The notes under the pieces are model-generated. The model made no database searches and was not told the origin of the DNA. It was given only the letters and a program-made list of their open reading frames with translations. This document shows, one piece after another, positions 1,730-60,902 of a stretch of DNA of 64,000 bases (its first letter is position 1; each line of letters begins with the position of its first letter). Origin of the DNA: an uncultured Desulfovibrio sp. (lineage in GTDB: Bacteria; Desulfobacterota; Desulfovibrionia; Desulfovibrionales; Desulfovibrionaceae); the NCBI GenBank assembly GCA_913063155.1, contig CAJXYU010000004.1, forward strand, positions 338,834 through 402,833. Direction: 5' to 3'. The translations under genes were made by a program, and so were the position numbers.

Positions 1730-2626
1730 ATGAAACCCGTCATCGAGACAGACATCAAGGACTACCCGCTGCTGTCGCGCGGCAAAGTCAGAGACATCTA
1801 CGACATCGACGAGGAGACCCTGCTCATCGTCACTTCAGACCGCATTTCGGCCTACGATGTGATCATGCCCGACCCCATTCCCCAGAAAGGCGTGGTGCTC
1901 AACCAGATCACCCTGTTCTGGATGGAAATGATGGAGGATCTGGTGGAAAATCATATCATCGCCTCTGCAGTGGACGACTTCCCCGAGCCTCTCAAGGCAT
2001 ATCGGGACCAGCTGGAAGGGCGCGCAGTGCTGGTCAAGAAGGCCAAGCCCCTGCCCATCGAATGCATTGTCCGCGGTTTCATCACCGGCTCCGGTTGGAA
2101 CGACTACCGGAAGACCGGCAATGTCTGTGGCCACGTGCTTCCCGCCGACCTCCAGGAGTCGGATATGCTGAAAGAACCTTTGTTCACCCCGTCCACCAAG
2201 GCGGATCTGGGCGACCATGATGAAAACATCACCCTGGACAAGGCTGCGGAGCTTGTGGGAGAGGAAATGATGCGCAAGGTGGAAAAGCTCTCCCTGGACA
2301 TATACTCCCGCGCCCGCGATTACGCCAAGCAGCGCGGCATTCTTATCGCCGACACCAAATTCGAGTTCGGCACCATCGGCGACCGCCTCATCCTCATCGA
2401 CGAGGTGCTCACCCCGGACTCCTCGCGATTCTGGCCCATGGAAGGGTATGCGCCCGGCAAGTCCCAGCCCAGCTTCGACAAGCAATTCCTTCGCGACTGG
2501 CTGGTGGACATCGGCTTCAACAAGCAGCCCCCGGGACCGGCCATTCCCCAGGACATCAACGACCAGACCCGCTCCAAATACGTCGAGGCTTACCGCCTTT
2601 TGACCGGACAGGATCTGGGCATTTAG
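1730..2626 (+). CDS. purC: Phosphoribosylaminoimidazole-succinocarboxamide synthase
   Basis: SAICAR synthetase of de novo purine synthesis, joining CAIR and aspartate with ATP. The 298-residue length fits the longer, yeast ADE1-like form. The N-terminal LLSRGKVRDIYDI and the SDRISAYDVIMPDPIP block are family hallmarks, as are the RGFITGSGWNDY and LIDEVLTPDSSRF segments. A GAGGA ribosome-binding site lies 5 nt before the ATG. The stop codon is part of the AGGAGG ribosome-binding site of the next small ORF at 2636, so purC and the two small ORFs are likely one transcript. Confidence 0.97.
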   Translation: MKPVIETDIKDYPLLSRGKVRDIYDIDEETLLIVTSDRISAYDVIMPDPIPQKGVVLNQITLFWMEMMEDLVENHIIASAVDDFPEPLKAYRDQLEGRAVLVKKAKPLPIECIVRGFITGSGWNDYRKTGNVCGHVLPADLQESDMLKEPLFTPSTKADLGDHDENITLDKAAELVGEEMMRKVEKLSLDIYSRARDYAKQRGILIADTKFEFGTIGDRLILIDEVLTPDSSRFWPMEGYAPGKSQPSFDKQFLRDWLVDIGFNKQPPGPAIPQDINDQTRSKYVEAYRLLTGQDLGI

Positions 2627-2635
2627 GAGGATGCC

Positions 2636-2782
2636 ATGAAGGCTCTCATTTTGTTGGGTTGTTTTGCAGCGGGCTACTTCGCCATCACTTGGCTGGCCCC
2701 GAAGCTCGGCCTCAGCGGCAAATGAACGGCAAGCAAACAGTGCGACTGGAAGCCGCCGCAAGACGACGAAAATAAACAATGA
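2636..2782 (+). CDS. Predicted small membrane selenoprotein 1 (in-frame TGA = Sec30)
   Basis: With TGA read as stop, this is a 29-residue peptide behind a strong AGGAGG (spacing 5). Several facts argue the TGA at 2723-2725 is selenocysteine. (1) The frame stays open for 18 more codons and then ends at 2780-2782, overlapping the ATG of the next ORF as ATGA. (2) A hairpin starts 12 nt after the TGA. (3) The neighbouring ORF has its own in-frame TGA also at codon 30. (4) Both extensions carry Cys-x-Trp-Lys-Pro. The 48-residue product has a hydrophobic helix (residues 3-21), then LAPKL, Sec30, Cys36 and a hydrophilic acidic tail. selB and selA are in this window. Function is unknown; a membrane-anchored Sec/Cys redox peptide is an inference. 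Confidence 0.75.
2726..2755 (+). promoter_or_regulatory. SECIS-like hairpin of small selenoprotein 1
   Basis: Twelve nucleotides after the TGA lies CAGT-GCG-ACTG (2738-2748), with a lower stem CGGC (2727-2730) pairing with GCCG (2752-2755). Bacterial SECIS elements bind SelB through a short hairpin about 11 nt downstream of UGA with G in the apical loop. Spacing and loop fit; the apical stem is only 4 bp, so folding support is moderate. Confidence 0.6.
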
Positions 2783-2940
2783 AGGGAGTACCGCTCTCCT
2801 TCCTTCATATCGGCATTGCCTTGGCTGTGGGGTTTTATGTGGCCCCACGGCTCAAGTTCTGGGGCTGAATGACCGGGGAATGCGGCTGGAAGCCGCAATC
2901 CGGAGCCCGCAAGAATGCTGACAAGAAAAACAAAAAGTGA
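2779..2940 (+). CDS. Predicted small membrane selenoprotein 2 (in-frame TGA = Sec30)
   Basis: This paralogue of the preceding ORF starts at the ATG that overlaps its read-through stop (ATGA). The TGA at 2866-2868 is codon 30, exactly as in the first ORF, and the frame continues to TGA at 2938-2940, giving 53 residues. It has a hydrophobic helix (about residues 4-21), VAPRL (LAPKL in ORF 1), Sec30, Cys35, then Gly-Trp-Lys-Pro and a lysine-rich tail. There is no good ribosome-binding site before its ATG, which fits translational coupling. Coupling would only work if the first TGA is read through. Cys-containing homologues in other species would confirm the call. The function is unknown. Confidence 0.75.
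2869..2903 (+). promoter_or_regulatory. SECIS-like hairpin of small selenoprotein 2
   Basis: After a 12-nt spacer from the TGA comes a perfect 7-bp stem, TGCGGCT / AGCCGCA (2881-2897), with a GGA apical loop. A second helix, CCGG (2873-2876) with CCGG (2900-2903), can stack below it. Spacing and guanines in the loop match bacterial SECIS elements, and this is the stronger of the two hairpins. Confidence 0.68.
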
Positions 2941-3050: not shown

Positions 3051-3344
3051 ATGGCTAATTACGAAACCCTTCTGCTGCTCTCCCCGGAACTGGGTGAAGA
3101 CGGCCGCAAGGAAATCATGGAAAAGTTGGCCGGCGTCATCTCCACCCAGAATGGTGAGATCGCCGAAGTCGATGACTGGGGCATGCGCACTCTCGCCTAC
3201 CCGGTGGAAAAGCAGACCCGTGGTTACTACATCCGCCTCGTTTACGGAGGTCCCGGCCCGATCGTTGCCGAACTGGAACGCAACATCCGCATCACTGACG
3301 GCATCTTCAAATTCATGACCGTCAAACTCGAAAAGGCCGCTTAA
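3051..3344 (+). CDS. rpsF: 30S ribosomal protein S6
   Basis: S6 of the small subunit platform, which pairs with S18. The 97-residue length is typical. The N-terminal NYETLLLLSPEL and the GMRTLAYPVEKQTRGYY block are classic S6. The start has a strong AAGGAGG upstream. First gene of the rpsF-rpsR-rplI-dnaB operon; a single-stranded DNA-binding protein gene often found between S6 and S18 is absent here. Confidence 0.98.
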   Translation: MANYETLLLLSPELGEDGRKEIMEKLAGVISTQNGEIAEVDDWGMRTLAYPVEKQTRGYYIRLVYGGPGPIVAELERNIRITDGIFKFMTVKLEKAA

Positions 3345-11794: not shown

Positions 11795-12627
11795 ACCTGC
11801 TCCCCGAATTTGTCCATACGACGTCCCAACAGCTTGAGGTGAGCCAACTCCTCGCGGGCGAGCATTTCGAACGCCTCATGCGTTTCCCGGCTGTTGCTGG
11901 CCCGGGAACAGCGCATGTAGTAGTCATAGGCCTGAGCCTCGATCATCATGGCCAAGATAACGATGCCCTCCAGCCCGTCGAAAAGGTCGCCATGTTCTTC
12001 AAGGAAAGCCTCGATCTCCACCCCGCCTTCGGTCATGCCGCGGGCGGAACCGGTCACTTCCCGCTCAAAGACATCCCTGGTCAAAGGCGCCGTCTCAACC
12101 CTGGCATAAATTCTGTAAAGCACATCTTTATGGCGCTCTTCGAAACCGGCCAGTTCCGCAAAGAGCTTCATCCCCTCCTCATTCTCGGCCTCGTCGCCGC
12201 AACGCCGATAATAGGACTGGAGGTTGTCTTCCATATCATAGGCTTTGATCACGGCCTCACCCGGCGTTTCATTACCTGTGAAGTCGGTCAACCCCAGATC
12301 AACTGGACCATACGCCGCCTGCCCCTGCCAAGCGGAAGCACCGCCCACGATATTGTTCACATCGCTGAACCCGCTTCCGACCAACATCCTGGCGGCGGCC
12401 ATGCTGCGCCCTCCAGAGCGGCAATAAACCAACACTGGCTCATCCGGCTCCATTTCATCCAAATGGTCCGCCAACTCGGGCAGCGGCACCAGCAACGCCC
12501 CAGGAATGTGAAACTCTTCGTACTCCCAAGGCTGGCGCACATCCAACAAAGTGTATTCCTCGGGCCTCATGCCAGCCATCACTTCTTCCGCCTCTTTGGG
12601 AGCCAGGCTCTTGATCATACCGCTCAT
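11791..12627 (-). CDS. Rhodanese-ferritin-like (rubrerythrin-type) fusion protein
   Basis: The N-terminal 110 residues form a rhodanese domain with the active loop VYCRSGGRS (cysteine near residue 71). The rest is a four-helix ferritin-like domain with paired di-iron ligands: EERH near residue 179 and EELAH near residue 265. Rhodanese moves sulfane sulfur and rubrerythrin-type domains reduce peroxide, so a role in sulfur or oxidative stress handling is inferred. The ATG at 12627 has GGAG 8 nt upstream; an ATG at 12651 does not. The pairing of these two domains in one chain is seen in sulfate reducers. Confidence 0.87.
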   Translation of the reverse strand: MSGMIKSLAPKEAEEVMAGMRPEEYTLLDVRQPWEYEEFHIPGALLVPLPELADHLDEMEPDEPVLVYCRSGGRSMAAARMLVGSGFSDVNNIVGGASAWQGQAAYGPVDLGLTDFTGNETPGEAVIKAYDMEDNLQSYYRRCGDEAENEEGMKLFAELAGFEERHKDVLYRIYARVETAPLTRDVFEREVTGSARGMTEGGVEIEAFLEEHGDLFDGLEGIVILAMMIEAQAYDYYMRCSRASNSRETHEAFEMLAREELAHLKLLGRRMDKFGEQV

Positions 12628-12717
12628 ATTCACTCCGACAGGAAAACACATTGATTTTCGCTCATGCGTTCAGTAGGTTCCTGACAGCCCAGTTACCATA
12701 TCACCAGCAAAAAACGA

Positions 12718-19803: not shown

Positions 19804-19834
19804 AAAAAAACAGGGACGCTCCGAAGAGCGCCCC
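19804..19834 (-). terminator. Terminator of the SRP RNA gene
   Basis: On the minus strand GGGGCGCTC-TTCG-GAGCGTCCC is followed by TG and seven T. It sits directly downstream of the SRP RNA closing stem. Confidence 0.9.
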
Positions 19835-19837
19835 TAT

Positions 19838-19928
19838 GAGGGAAGCCAGACACCCGATAGCAACCACTACCGCTGCTCCCTTTCGGGCCTGACGGGGTTC
19901 GCGGCGATACCGCCGTCCGGCTTCCCTC
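19838..19928 (-). ncRNA. ffs: Signal recognition particle RNA (4.5S-like)
   Basis: The minus strand contains the conserved domain IV, GTCAGGCCCGAAAGGGAGCAGC, in two parts: GTCAGG...CCGAAAGG and GGAGCAGC. The ends pair perfectly (GAGGGAAGCC with GGCTTCCCTC), closing a 91-nt rod. This is the short bacterial form without an Alu domain. It works with Ffh and FtsY to target membrane proteins. A strong terminator follows. Confidence 0.92.
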
Positions 19929-19985
19929 TGCCTTTCAGCTTCGTAAAGCGGAAAGACTGTCTATCGCAGTGACATGTTACAGTCA

Positions 19986-51893: not shown

Positions 51894-53804
51894 CTATACG
51901 CCGGATTTTCGCAGGTGGCGCACGTCGCCCACTCGCACGGTGAGTTTTTCCTTATCGAAATACTCCAGCACCGGGATGGCGAACTTACGGGAAAGGTCGG
52001 TAAGCGCCTTGAAGTCCTGTGCGCCCATCTCTTCGTTTTCTTTAAAGAAAGTAATGATACGGCTGCGAATGTCCTCCAGCGCGGGCGTATGGTAATACAT
52101 GTCTTCCTTGATCTTGGTCAGCACCCCTTCGTCCTGCAAATGGCGAAACAGAGGCGCAGCCTCCTTGAAACTCATCCGGGTCGGCGCCAGCACATCCTTG
52201 AGATTCGGCGGCCGGATGCCACCCTGTTCGTAAGCGTCCAGAATGATCTCGCGCACCTTGGCCGTGTCCGAGGCCAGAGACACCTTGTGCCCCTTGAGAC
52301 GCAGAATTTCCTGTTCGCCGACCACCTCGCCTTTCTTGACCATACGCTCCAGCACCAGATGAAAAAGCTTGGGCGGCAGTCCCCTGCCCCAAGTGGAGGC
52401 AAGCTCCCCCCGCTGCACGCCGGGCTTCATGGAGTCCTTCCTGTGAAAATCGGCCAGAAACGCAAGCAGGCTGTCGCAGAGCCTCTCCACCAGTGCGCCG
52501 CCGGCAAACCTGCGGTCATCCTTGTCGAACATGAGAGCCTGCTGTCTCCCGGCCATGCCGGTGAGTTCCTTATCCAATGCCTTGGATTCCAGGTTGGACA
52601 TGGTCATGAGTTCGGCAAAAGACACCCCGGCCGCACCGGCCAGCTCAAGCTGTTGCAGAATCACGGCGGCGGAATCGTCACCGGCCAAGGCTTCCAACGC
52701 CCCGACCTGCCCTGAGAACCGCTTGATCTTGTGCCCGGCCGGACTGATGATCCGACCGCCGGCAATGGTGCGCAGGGGCGAAAAGGAACGCAGCACAACG
52801 CGATCCCCGTAGACCCCGGCCATGGGTTCGTCAAAACGCACCTGGCAGACGCATTGCTCCCCGGGAAGGATTTTCTCGCGGTCAACAAAGTGAATACGGG
52901 CCATGACCTCGCGGGAGCCATGATGGAAATGCACTTGCTTGCGGTGCTTGAGCGGAAGCGGCGAGGACTCGAGCATGGACAGCTCGATATCCCACACGGT
53001 TGCCGGGAACATGGTTCCGGGCCTGGCCAGAATCTCGCCCCGGGAAATATCCTGGACCTCGACCCCTTGCAGGTTCACGGCGGTCCTGCGTCCTGCCGGA
53101 GCCTCCTCGACAGTCGCACCGTGGGACTGCAGGCCCCGCACCTTGGTTGCCGCCCCTCCGGGATAAAGCATCACGTCGTCGCCGACCTTGAAGCTGCCGG
53201 AAATAAGCGTGCCGGTAACCACGGTGCCATACCCTTTCATGGTGAAGACGCGGTCCACAGGCAGCCGGGCCAGGTCGGAACGGCGCGTGGGTTTGAATTC
53301 GTCCATGAGCTTTTTGAGTTCGCCCTTGAGGACGTCCAGCCCCTCCTCGGTATGTGCGGAGACGGGCACGATGGGTGCGCCGGCCAGGAATGTCTGCTCC
53401 AGGTAGGAGGCAACCTCCTCCTGCACCATTTCCAGCCAGTCTTCGTCCACCATATCGGTCTTGGTCAGGGCCACCACGCCTGTTTCTATGCCCAACAGGG
53501 AACAGATTTCCAAATGCTCACGGGTCTGAGGCATAATACCTTCGTCCGCGGCAATGACCAAAAGTACGAAGTCGATGCCCGCCGCCCCTGCCACCATATT
53601 CTTGACGAACCGTTCATGGCCGGGCACGTCCACCACGGACAAACGTGTGGAATCGTCGAAATCAAGAAATGCGAACCCCAGTTCGATGGTGATGCCGCGC
53701 TTCTTTTCTTCGGAAAGGCGATCACAGTCGATCCCGGTCAGGGCTTTGATGAGAGTGGTCTTGCCATGGTCGATATGACCGGCGGTACCCATGACGACAG
53801 GCAT
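51894..53804 (-). CDS. selB: Selenocysteine-specific translation elongation factor
   Basis: SelB delivers Sec-tRNA to UGA codons marked by a SECIS hairpin. The 636-residue protein has EF-Tu-like GTPase motifs: [13 protein letters not shown] (near residue 6), [12 protein letters not shown] and ALTKTDMVD. Beta-barrel domains follow to residue 370. The C-terminal winged-helix array (residues 380-636) that binds the SECIS is present, ending [20 protein letters not shown] good AGGA lies 7 nt before the ATG. Together with selA in this window it shows the organism makes selenoproteins; selC and selD are not in the window. Confidence 0.96.
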
Positions 53805-59504: not shown

Positions 59505-60902
59505 TTATATTCCAAGAGCCTGCTTCAACGCCGATGCAGCGAGTTTGTTTTCCTTTGGATCAAGCGTGCGCGGGTCGAGACAGAAAAGCTCGTCCTCGAT
59601 GCGGGCCACCAGGGGAGGCTCGGTAGCCAGCAGACGTTCCTTGAGTTCGCGCACGGAAATATTCCCGGGGGCCACGGCAACAAGGGAGGTCGGAATATCC
59701 TGCTCCGGGAACGCGCCGCCGCCCACGCGGGAAACGCCCTTGCGGATGGAGATTTCCGCGGCATCCCCCAGTTCGGAACGCAACACCTTGGCCAGCCGCC
59801 CGGCCCTGCCGCGCAGCGTCTTGTACTCCATGGTGATCATGTTCAGGGTGGGCACGGTCTCGCGCACCTTGTCCTTGTCCAGATAAAGCCGCAAGGTGGC
59901 CTCCAAGGCAGCCAGGGTCACCTTGTCGATGCGCAGGGCACGGTTGAGGGGATTGCTTTTGATCCGGTCGATCCACTTCCTGCGGCCCACGATGATCCCG
60001 GCCTGCGGTCCGCCGAGCACCTTGTCGCCCGAAAAGGAAACCACATCCGCGCCTTGGGCCACCACTTCCTGCACCGTCGGCTCGTCGCACAATCCGGCGC
60101 CTTCGAACCGGAACAGGCTGCCGCTTCCCAAATCCTCCAGCACGGGCAAACCGTAGCGGTCTCCCAATTCGCGCATCTCCTCCAGGGAGACATCCTTGGT
60201 AAAACCGATGAGCCGGAAATTGGAAGTATGCACACGCATAAACGCAGCAGTGTTGTCGTTGACGGCCTGCTCGTAATCCTTCAAGTGGGTCCGGTTGGTG
60301 GCCCCCACCTCGTGGAGGATCGACCCGCTCTTGGCCATGACGTCGGGGATACGGAACGAACCGCCGATCTCCACCAGCTGACCGCGTGAAACCACCACCT
60401 CGCGCCCCTTGGCCAGAGTTTCCAGCATAATGAACACGGCCGAGGCGTTGTTGTTGACCACCAGTGCGGCCTCCGCGCCGGTGATGTCGCAAAGCAGCTT
60501 TTCCACGTGGCTATAGCGGCTGCCCCGCTCTCCCGTGACAAGGTTGAATTCCAGATTGGAATAGTGCGCGCAGGCGTCCACCACAGCCTCGACAGCTTCC
60601 CTGGCCAACAGCGAGCGGCCCATGTTGGTGTGAACAACGACGCCCGTTGCGTTGAGCACGCGACGAAAATGAGGCCGCGCCTTGACGCGGATGAAGGACT
60701 CCAGCCTCGGCAGAAGATTTTCGAGCGCCAGTTCCACGGCATCGGTCACAACGCCGGACTTGATCTCCTCGCGCTTGATGTCCAGGAATTCGTTGACCAG
60801 ATCGCGCACCAACGGGCGCGGCAGACCGCGCAGGCCGGAATCTTTGTCCAGCTCGCCGAAAACACTGTCCACGGACGGCAGATGACGGAAGAGTTGCGAC
60901 AC
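59505..60902 (-). CDS. selA: L-seryl-tRNA(Sec) selenium transferase
   Basis: SelA turns Ser-tRNA(Sec) into Sec-tRNA(Sec) with selenophosphate; a PLP decamer. The 465-residue protein has an N-terminal tRNA-binding region, RRVLNATGVVVHTNMGRSLL (near residue 80-100), VNNNASAVFIMLETLA and the PLP lysine in VSFSGDKVLGGPQAG (near residue 292). The length is standard. The start is GTG with AAGGAG 7 nt upstream. It lies between folC and the M18 gene on one strand. With selB, it supports real selenocysteine use, relevant to the TGA codons at 2723 and 2866. Confidence 0.97.
   Translation of the reverse strand: MSQLFRHLPSVDSVFGELDKDSGLRGLPRPLVRDLVNEFLDIKREEIKSGVVTDAVELALENLLPRLESFIRVKARPHFRRVLNATGVVVHTNMGRSLLAREAVEAVVDACAHYSNLEFNLVTGERGSRYSHVEKLLCDITGAEAALVVNNNASAVFIMLETLAKGREVVVSRGQLVEIGGSFRIPDVMAKSGSILHEVGATNRTHLKDYEQAVNDNTAAFMRVHTSNFRLIGFTKDVSLEEMRELGDRYGLPVLEDLGSGSLFRFEGAGLCDEPTVQEVVAQGADVVSFSGDKVLGGPQAGIIVGRRKWIDRIKSNPLNRALRIDKVTLAALEATLRLYLDKDKVRETVPTLNMITMEYKTLRGRAGRLAKVLRSELGDAAEISIRKGVSRVGGGAFPEQDIPTSLVAVAPGNISVRELKERLLATEPPLVARIEDELFCLDPRTLDPKENKLAASALKQALGI

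What the first reader, a model, noticed from the sequence alone, without database searches (positions are those of the whole stretch)
2636..2940. Tandem pair of paralogous mini-selenoproteins hidden by in-frame TGA codons
Seen directly: both ORFs carry TGA at codon 30, an open frame after it, and a conserved Cys-x-Trp-Lys-Pro after a spacing of 4-5 residues. A short hairpin starts 12 nt after each TGA. The first ORF's read-through stop (2780-2782) overlaps the second ORF's ATG (2779) as ATGA. Before the TGA both share a membrane helix and (L/V)AP(K/R)L. Established: bacterial SECIS hairpins start about 11 nt after UGA; selA and selB occur in this window. Inference: membrane-anchored selenopeptides, perhaps a Sec/Cys redox pair. 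Gene finders would call two 29-residue peptides or nothing. I do not recognise the family and cannot claim nobody has described it.
Basis: partly seen in the sequence, partly recalled or inferred. Interest (0 to 1): 0.93.

Follow-up and report, generated by a model that had tools for sequence, protein, structure and literature searches.

The report
Tandem membrane mini-selenoproteins, unnamed widespread family
Two overlapping bacterial mini-genes each carry a UGA codon predicted to be read as selenocysteine; they belong to a family of about 50-residue, predicted membrane-anchored peptides found in several bacterial phyla, not described in the databases and papers searched here, and likely to pass electrons or sulfur at the membrane.

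Summary
Both ORFs (2636-2782, 2779-2940) have TGA at codon 30, an open frame behind it and Cys-x-Trp-Lys-Pro downstream. They belong to a large family that matched no Pfam or NCBIfam model. Its profile hits 161 of 348 genomes of the order and 154 of 395 sampled in the phylum (some hits are chance or other Cys-rich peptides). A scan keyed on residues upstream of the TGA gave 80 named loci in several phyla: 66 TGA, 14 Cys, nothing else. selB is over cut-off in 28 of 34 genomes with the TGA form and 2 of 14 with the Cys form. The hairpin behind the TGA covaries (52 double-sided changes against 18 in shuffles). Selenocysteine insertion is thus very well supported, without experiment. Function is inferred: a membrane-anchored Sec/Cys pair, likely a thiol or sulfane-sulfur relay, because some relatives are fused to thioredoxin or to a sulfide:quinone-reductase-like protein, or lie beside persulfide-type genes. 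The window pair itself lies between purC and rpsF, which says nothing about function. ORF1's hairpin is imperfect. The overlapping pair was seen in only two genomes of its genus.

The parts
2625..2630 (+). AGGAGG, ribosome-binding site of gene 1
   Evidence: sequence
2636..2782 (+). gene 1: 48-residue read-through ORF with TGA at codon 30 and a final TGA
2723..2725 (+). TGA predicted to encode selenocysteine, gene 1
   Evidence: same place in relatives
2738..2756 (+). imperfect SECIS-like region of gene 1: 4-bp CAGU-GCG-ACUG (2738-2748) overlapping GCGAC-UGGAA-GCCGC (2742-2756, one A.C mismatch)
2779..2782 (+). ATGA: start of gene 2 overlapping the stop of gene 1
   Evidence: the same overlap in G023
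2779..2940 (+). gene 2: 53-residue read-through ORF with TGA at codon 30 and a final TGA
2866..2868 (+). TGA predicted to encode selenocysteine, gene 2
2881..2897 (+). SECIS-like hairpin of gene 2, 7 bp, loop GGA
51894..53804 (-). selB, selenocysteine-specific elongation factor
   Evidence: Pfam SelB-wing_2 and SelB-wing_3
59523..60890 (-). selA match
   Evidence: TIGR00474, 607.6 bits; coordinates converted

Best explanation
Two tandem, overlapping genes are predicted to make about 50-residue single-pass membrane selenoproteins in which UGA is read as selenocysteine and a Sec/Cys pair, likely facing the cytoplasm, would act as a membrane-anchored thiol or sulfane-sulfur relay. Shown from sequence: the TGA is kept in relatives, Cys takes its place in genomes mostly without selB, the hairpin behind it covaries, a hydrophobic segment is followed by positive charges, and the genome has selA, selB and tRNA-Sec. 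Inferred: that UGA is decoded as Sec in this cell, the topology, and the redox or sulfur-transfer role, which rests on fusions and neighbours in other lineages. Also inferred: gene 2 has no clear ribosome-binding site and starts inside the stop of gene 1, so its translation would depend on ribosomes that have read through the Sec codon of gene 1.
For: G023 has both genes, each with one TGA. Profile hits in 161 of 348 order and 154 of 395 phylum genomes. 80 named loci found by a pattern upstream of the site: 66 TGA, 14 Cys, 0 other. selB over cut-off in 28 of 34 Sec-form and 2 of 14 Cys-form genomes, p 1.7e-5. Hairpin in 103 of 106 TGA-bearing genes, mean score 15.6 against 4.1 (sd 0.48) in codon shuffles. 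Covariation 52 cells against 18.1 (0 of 500 shuffles). Stem of 5 bp or more in 55 of 66 Sec and 4 of 14 Cys genes. Profile comparison aligns the Sec column with Cys, probability 97.6. More positive charge behind than before the helix in 103 of 106. Fusions to thioredoxin (L193, L240) and to a Pyr_redox_2 protein (L220). Redox, sulfur or FmdB-type neighbours within 1.5 kb in 33 of 80 and 17 of 51 loci against 0 of 35 control loci.
Against: No experiment. ORF1's hairpin is imperfect and folds no better than shuffles; ORF2's only weakly so. In 7 of 106 genes no Cys follows the Sec within 2-7 residues, so the pair is not universal. The window genes have purC and rpsF as neighbours, none of the redox genes. 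The neighbour queries were taken from the neighbourhoods themselves, and the 35 control loci come from the window's order, not from planctomycetes. Six of 34 Sec-form genomes lack selB over cut-off (probably draft gaps). A profile of the Cys forms finds nothing in the own genome. In one search one of five measures, the number of pair types, is not above shuffles (152 of 500).
Confidence: 0.72

Rival explanations
1. The TGA codons are ordinary stops: 29-residue membrane peptides are made, and a separate short ORF may restart behind them (TGAATG).
For: 32 of 106 genes, ORF2 among them, have ATG right after the TGA; 96 of the 120 listed database proteins are 28-31 residues long.
Against: 74 of 106 have no ATG there; 19 of the 24 longer listed proteins run through with Cys at that place, and Met follows that Cys in many; covarying hairpins; 28 of 34 against 2 of 14 for selB; conserved downstream Cys.
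Confidence: 0.04
2. These are selenopeptides, but one copy of the tandem pair is decaying or is read only poorly.
For: The stem has a mismatch in the window's gene 1, and in G023 the stem of gene 2 is interrupted. Only 2 of the 34 genus genomes with a hit have two.
Against: Frames, TGAs and downstream motifs of both genes are kept in both genomes at 78% and 65% identity.
Confidence: 0.12
3. The Sec/Cys site binds a metal or serves iron or zinc handling rather than redox or sulfur transfer.
For: Same layout as FeoB-associated Cys-rich membrane peptides (L025 scores 14.5 bits on PF12669, cut-off 27; L125-L127 and L130 look like them); zinc-ribbon (FmdB-type, recalled label) neighbours in 9 of 51 and 5 of 80 loci.
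Against: Thioredoxin and Pyr_redox_2 fusions and sulfur-gene neighbours; Sec usually marks redox sites (established knowledge).
Confidence: 0.15

Closest known systems
Catalogued prokaryotic selenoproteins (table of 119 families in PMC13188914; NCBIfam selenoprotein models)
   Same: In-frame TGA, SECIS-like hairpin, Cys homologues, Sec machinery in the genome.
   Different: No entry of that table fits by name or motif and no NCBIfam model matched over cut-off; about 50 residues, one membrane helix, no thioredoxin fold of its own.
FeoB-associated Cys-rich membrane protein, PF12669
   Same: About 50 residues, one N-terminal helix, Gly/Cys motif right behind it.
   Different: Best family member scanned scores 14.5 bits against a cut-off of 27, the window genes have no match.
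Eukaryotic SELENOK and SELENOS (recalled, not tested)
   Same: Small single-pass membrane proteins with Sec in a charged cytosolic tail.
   Different: Unrelated in sequence as far as recalled; Sec near the C-terminus; no comparison was run.
Persulfide-detoxification operons (metallo-beta-lactamase/rhodanese, TauE, sulfide:quinone-reductase-like, YgaP-like proteins)
   Same: Several relatives, mostly from planctomycete assemblies, lie beside or are fused to such proteins.
   Different: The window genes do not; no biochemical link is shown.

Membership tests
bacterial selenoprotein | in-frame TGA at one conserved place, or Cys there | tested here: met
   66 TGA, 14 Cys, 0 other of 80 named loci; 26 further genes besides the window's two
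bacterial selenoprotein | SECIS hairpin behind the TGA | tested here: met
   family: 103 of 106, covariation; window ORF2 yes, ORF1 imperfect
bacterial selenoprotein | Sec machinery in the genome | tested here: met
   selA, selB, tRNA-Sec
bacterial selenoprotein | selenium shown in the protein | not testable with these tools
   needs 75Se labelling or mass spectrometry
FeoB-associated PF12669 | Pfam score over cut-off | tested here: not met
   0 matches for the window genes; best of the 22 family proteins scanned 14.5 bits against 27
families named in NCBIfam, catalogued selenoproteins among them | NCBIfam score over cut-off | tested here: not met
   0 of 22 full-length family proteins over a cut-off, only weak matches
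thiol or sulfane-sulfur redox protein | activity | not testable with these tools
   only fusions and neighbours

The most novel reading that the evidence does not exclude
A trans-phylum family of membrane selenopeptides is a missing component of sulfane-sulfur handling: the Sec/Cys pair takes up persulfide sulfur or electrons at the membrane and exchanges them with thioredoxin or sulfide:quinone-reductase-like proteins. In the window's lineage the ATGA-coupled pair makes synthesis of the second peptide depend on selenocysteine insertion in the first, a built-in selenium gate.
Probability: 0.2. Interest if true: 0.9.

Novelty: new variant of a known kind. Interest (0 to 1): 0.82.

Why it matters
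Gene callers cut these proteins at the TGA: 96 of the 120 database proteins listed are 28-31 residues. A family whose profile hits nearly half of the order's held genomes, with named relatives in planctomycete, acidobacterial, myxobacterial and other assemblies, is therefore read as scraps or not at all. If confirmed it adds an unusually small selenoprotein family, links selenium to membrane thiol or persulfide chemistry, and gives a tandem, translation-coupled pair in which selenium dependence can be tested directly.

Tried and rejected
Own-genome search with ORF1: three further weak hits (L002-L004), judged chance. A single-sequence search with ORF2 found only G023 reliably among 60 relatives; a profile was needed. 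Folding energy as an argument: not significant for ORF1. TGA as Trp: rejected because the same genes can end in TGA and relatives carry Cys; P0003, P0006 and P0012 show Trp there, probably gene calls with code 4 (inference; P0006 is close to L239, which has TGA). Structure prediction: mean pLDDT 69, helix 2-23, nothing confident behind it, so no fold search was made. Fixed-register pairing over all 43 U-x4-C genes is poor because the helix register differs between clades; therefore used 32 of 43, leaving out the ORF2 pair (L034, L035) and nine genes whose loop starts 13-17 nt after the TGA. selB within the phylum is nearly saturated (353 of 395 over cut-off) and only mildly informative: 146 of 353 against 8 of 42 have the family, p 0.004 (tallied by hand, one of the 8 a chance hit). 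The Pfam scan of a signal-peptide fragment told nothing.

Full report
WHAT IS THERE. The window (4.3-Mb genome G000, contig C4) has two short ORFs between purC (1730-2626) and rpsF (3051-3344) (the gene names are recalled from the sequences). Both hold TGA at codon 30 and stay open behind it, to residues 48 and 53. Gene 1 has AGGAGG upstream; gene 2 starts inside the stop of gene 1 as ATGA and has no clear ribosome-binding site (sequence).

RELATIVES. With the read-through peptides as queries G023 has both genes (E 2.5e-20 and 1.0e-15), each with one TGA. Its length, 3,886,744 bp, equals that given for Salidesulfovibrio onnuriiensis IOR2 in a passage of PMC12013277, so it is probably that strain; that paper's row lists 10 known and no further selenoprotein genes there. 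I read 28 family genes from these searches, the window's two and 26 others, picked for a TGA and the motif. Of the genus g1 genomes held then, 18 of 18 (own included) have purC and rpsF on the two sides; five loci of other families keep purC without rpsF in reach, three show neither. The profile A1 hits 161 of 348 order genomes and 154 of 395 sampled phylum genomes at E 0.01 or better; in genus g1 34 of 36, of which only G000 and G023 have two hits. Not every hit is a member: of 20 loci fetched because they lacked a TGA, matched in part or stood for a group, 12 are TGA forms, one is a Cys form (G123), four look like FeoB-associated Cys-rich peptides and three are chance.

THE FAMILY. Outside the window's genus the pattern is a short N-terminus, a helix ending in LNRW(V/I)(F/L)PKLG or similar, then TUMSxSC and a charged tail. 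106 distinct TGA-bearing genes are 44-63 residues long with Sec at 28-31 and end in TAA 40, TAG 36, TGA 30. A Cys follows the Sec after 4 (43 genes), 5 (22), 6 (33) or 7 (1) residues; 7 of 106 have none within reach. The protein database gave 304 hits, 120 listed: 96 of those are 28-31 residues. Of the 24 longer ones, 19 have Cys at the place, 3 Trp, 2 end before it. A scan of named genomes with a pattern upstream of the site confirmed 144 loci and kept 80, with record titles from Planctomycetota, Acidobacteria, Myxococcota, Deltaproteobacteria groups, KSB1, LCP-89, Spirochaetes and Bacteroidetes: 66 TGA, 14 Cys, 0 other. Most are draft assemblies, and L259 (KSB1) and L262 (Bacteroidetes) encode the same peptide, so one may be misbinned. 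hhalign of A1 with the Cys profile A4: probability 97.6, E 4.4e-12, Sec column on Cys column. A model built from 52 phylum and 80 named sequences scores the four tandem genes (12.8-22.7 bits) above all 800 shuffled sequences (best 8.0).

SELENOCYSTEINE. selB is over cut-off in 28 of 34 Sec-form and 2 of 14 Cys-form genomes; 48 of the 80 named loci were queried: all 14 Cys forms and 34 of the 66 Sec forms, chosen outside the deltaproteobacterial titles. A hairpin with a G in the first two loop positions lies behind the TGA in 103 of 106 genes (98 with at least 5 bp); mean score 15.6 against 4.1, sd 0.48, highest 5.2, in 200 codon-shuffled sets. On 32 of the 43 U-x4-C genes all seven pairs show changes on both sides: 52 such cells against 18.1 in shuffles (0 of 500) and 15-27 for slid helices; 76.8% of cells paired against 28.6-42.4% slid; the number of pair types is not above shuffles (152 of 500). 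A stem of 5 bp or more: 55 of 66 Sec and 4 of 14 Cys genes, p 1e-4; codon shuffles of the Sec genes 25%. The Cys gene L230 keeps a 7-bp stem in a genome without selB over cut-off, as after a recent Sec-to-Cys change. In the window ORF2's stem is perfect, ORF1's is not, and folding energies alone prove neither.

FUNCTION. Hydropathy and charge give one helix with more positive charge behind it than before it in 103 of 106 genes, 3 ties. AlphaFold2 gives helix 2-23 for ORF1 and little confidence behind it. L193 (Cys) and L240 (Sec) run on without a stop into a thioredoxin domain, L220 (Sec) into a Pyr_redox_2 domain. Twelve queries of redox, sulfur or FmdB type, taken from these neighbourhoods, match within 1.5 kb in 33 of 80 named and 17 of 51 other loci and in 0 of 35 control loci; without the ten source loci, counted by hand, 27 of 74 and 13 of 47. 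The controls are chance-hit loci of the window's order, so they do not match the planctomycete set. Categories overlap through the rhodanese domain. Pfam supports metallo-beta-lactamase plus rhodanese, TauE, Pyr_redox_2, rhodanese and YgaP-like TM in the loci scanned; the names ETHE1, SQR, CoA-disulfide reductase, CcdA and FmdB are recalled. For the window genes this function is an extrapolation: their neighbours are purC and rpsF.

WHAT IS KNOWN. No Pfam or NCBIfam model matched over cut-off for 22 family proteins. PMC13188914: abstract, passages and section 7 parts 1 and 2 of 3 with its table of 119 families; no entry fits by name or motif. Passages only of PMC12013277, PMC1914089, PMC1242214, PMC4807772 and PMC1794560; none seen describes it. 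Searches without a description. Most subscription papers and all supplements were out of reach, so an earlier mention is possible.

VERDICT. By the computational tests a real, widespread and apparently undescribed selenoprotein family; the overlapping pair is a rare local variant; function inferred.

Noticed in passing
L138 and L139 (G251, G261, genus g37): A second TGA-bearing membrane ORF (MWDNILFLL...GMRGUMPRPPDVWETP) follows the first family gene; it has no Cys behind the TGA. Another tandem arrangement, without overlap.
   Followed up: partly
L132, L133, L134 (genus g46): Family genes keep the TGA but have lost the near Cys and end in GGCGGN; an FmdB-like zinc-ribbon gene starts right behind.
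   Followed up: no
L230 (MAG Planctomycetales bacterium 71-10): Cys form that still has a 7-bp SECIS-like stem at the usual place, in a genome without selB over cut-off: a possible fossil SECIS.
   Followed up: partly
P0003, P0006, P0012: Database proteins with Trp at the Sec position, probably gene calls made with genetic code 4.
   Followed up: no
L125, L126, L127, L130: Cys-rich peptides (GGCGCGCS) with the same layout as FeoB-associated proteins were hit by the family profile; possibly distant kin.
   Followed up: no
window 12292-12633, minus strand: Rhodanese-like match (E about 1e-11) some 9 kb from the pair.
   Followed up: no
window 19834-19929, minus strand: Bacterial small SRP RNA beside a tRNA-Ser.
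   Followed up: no
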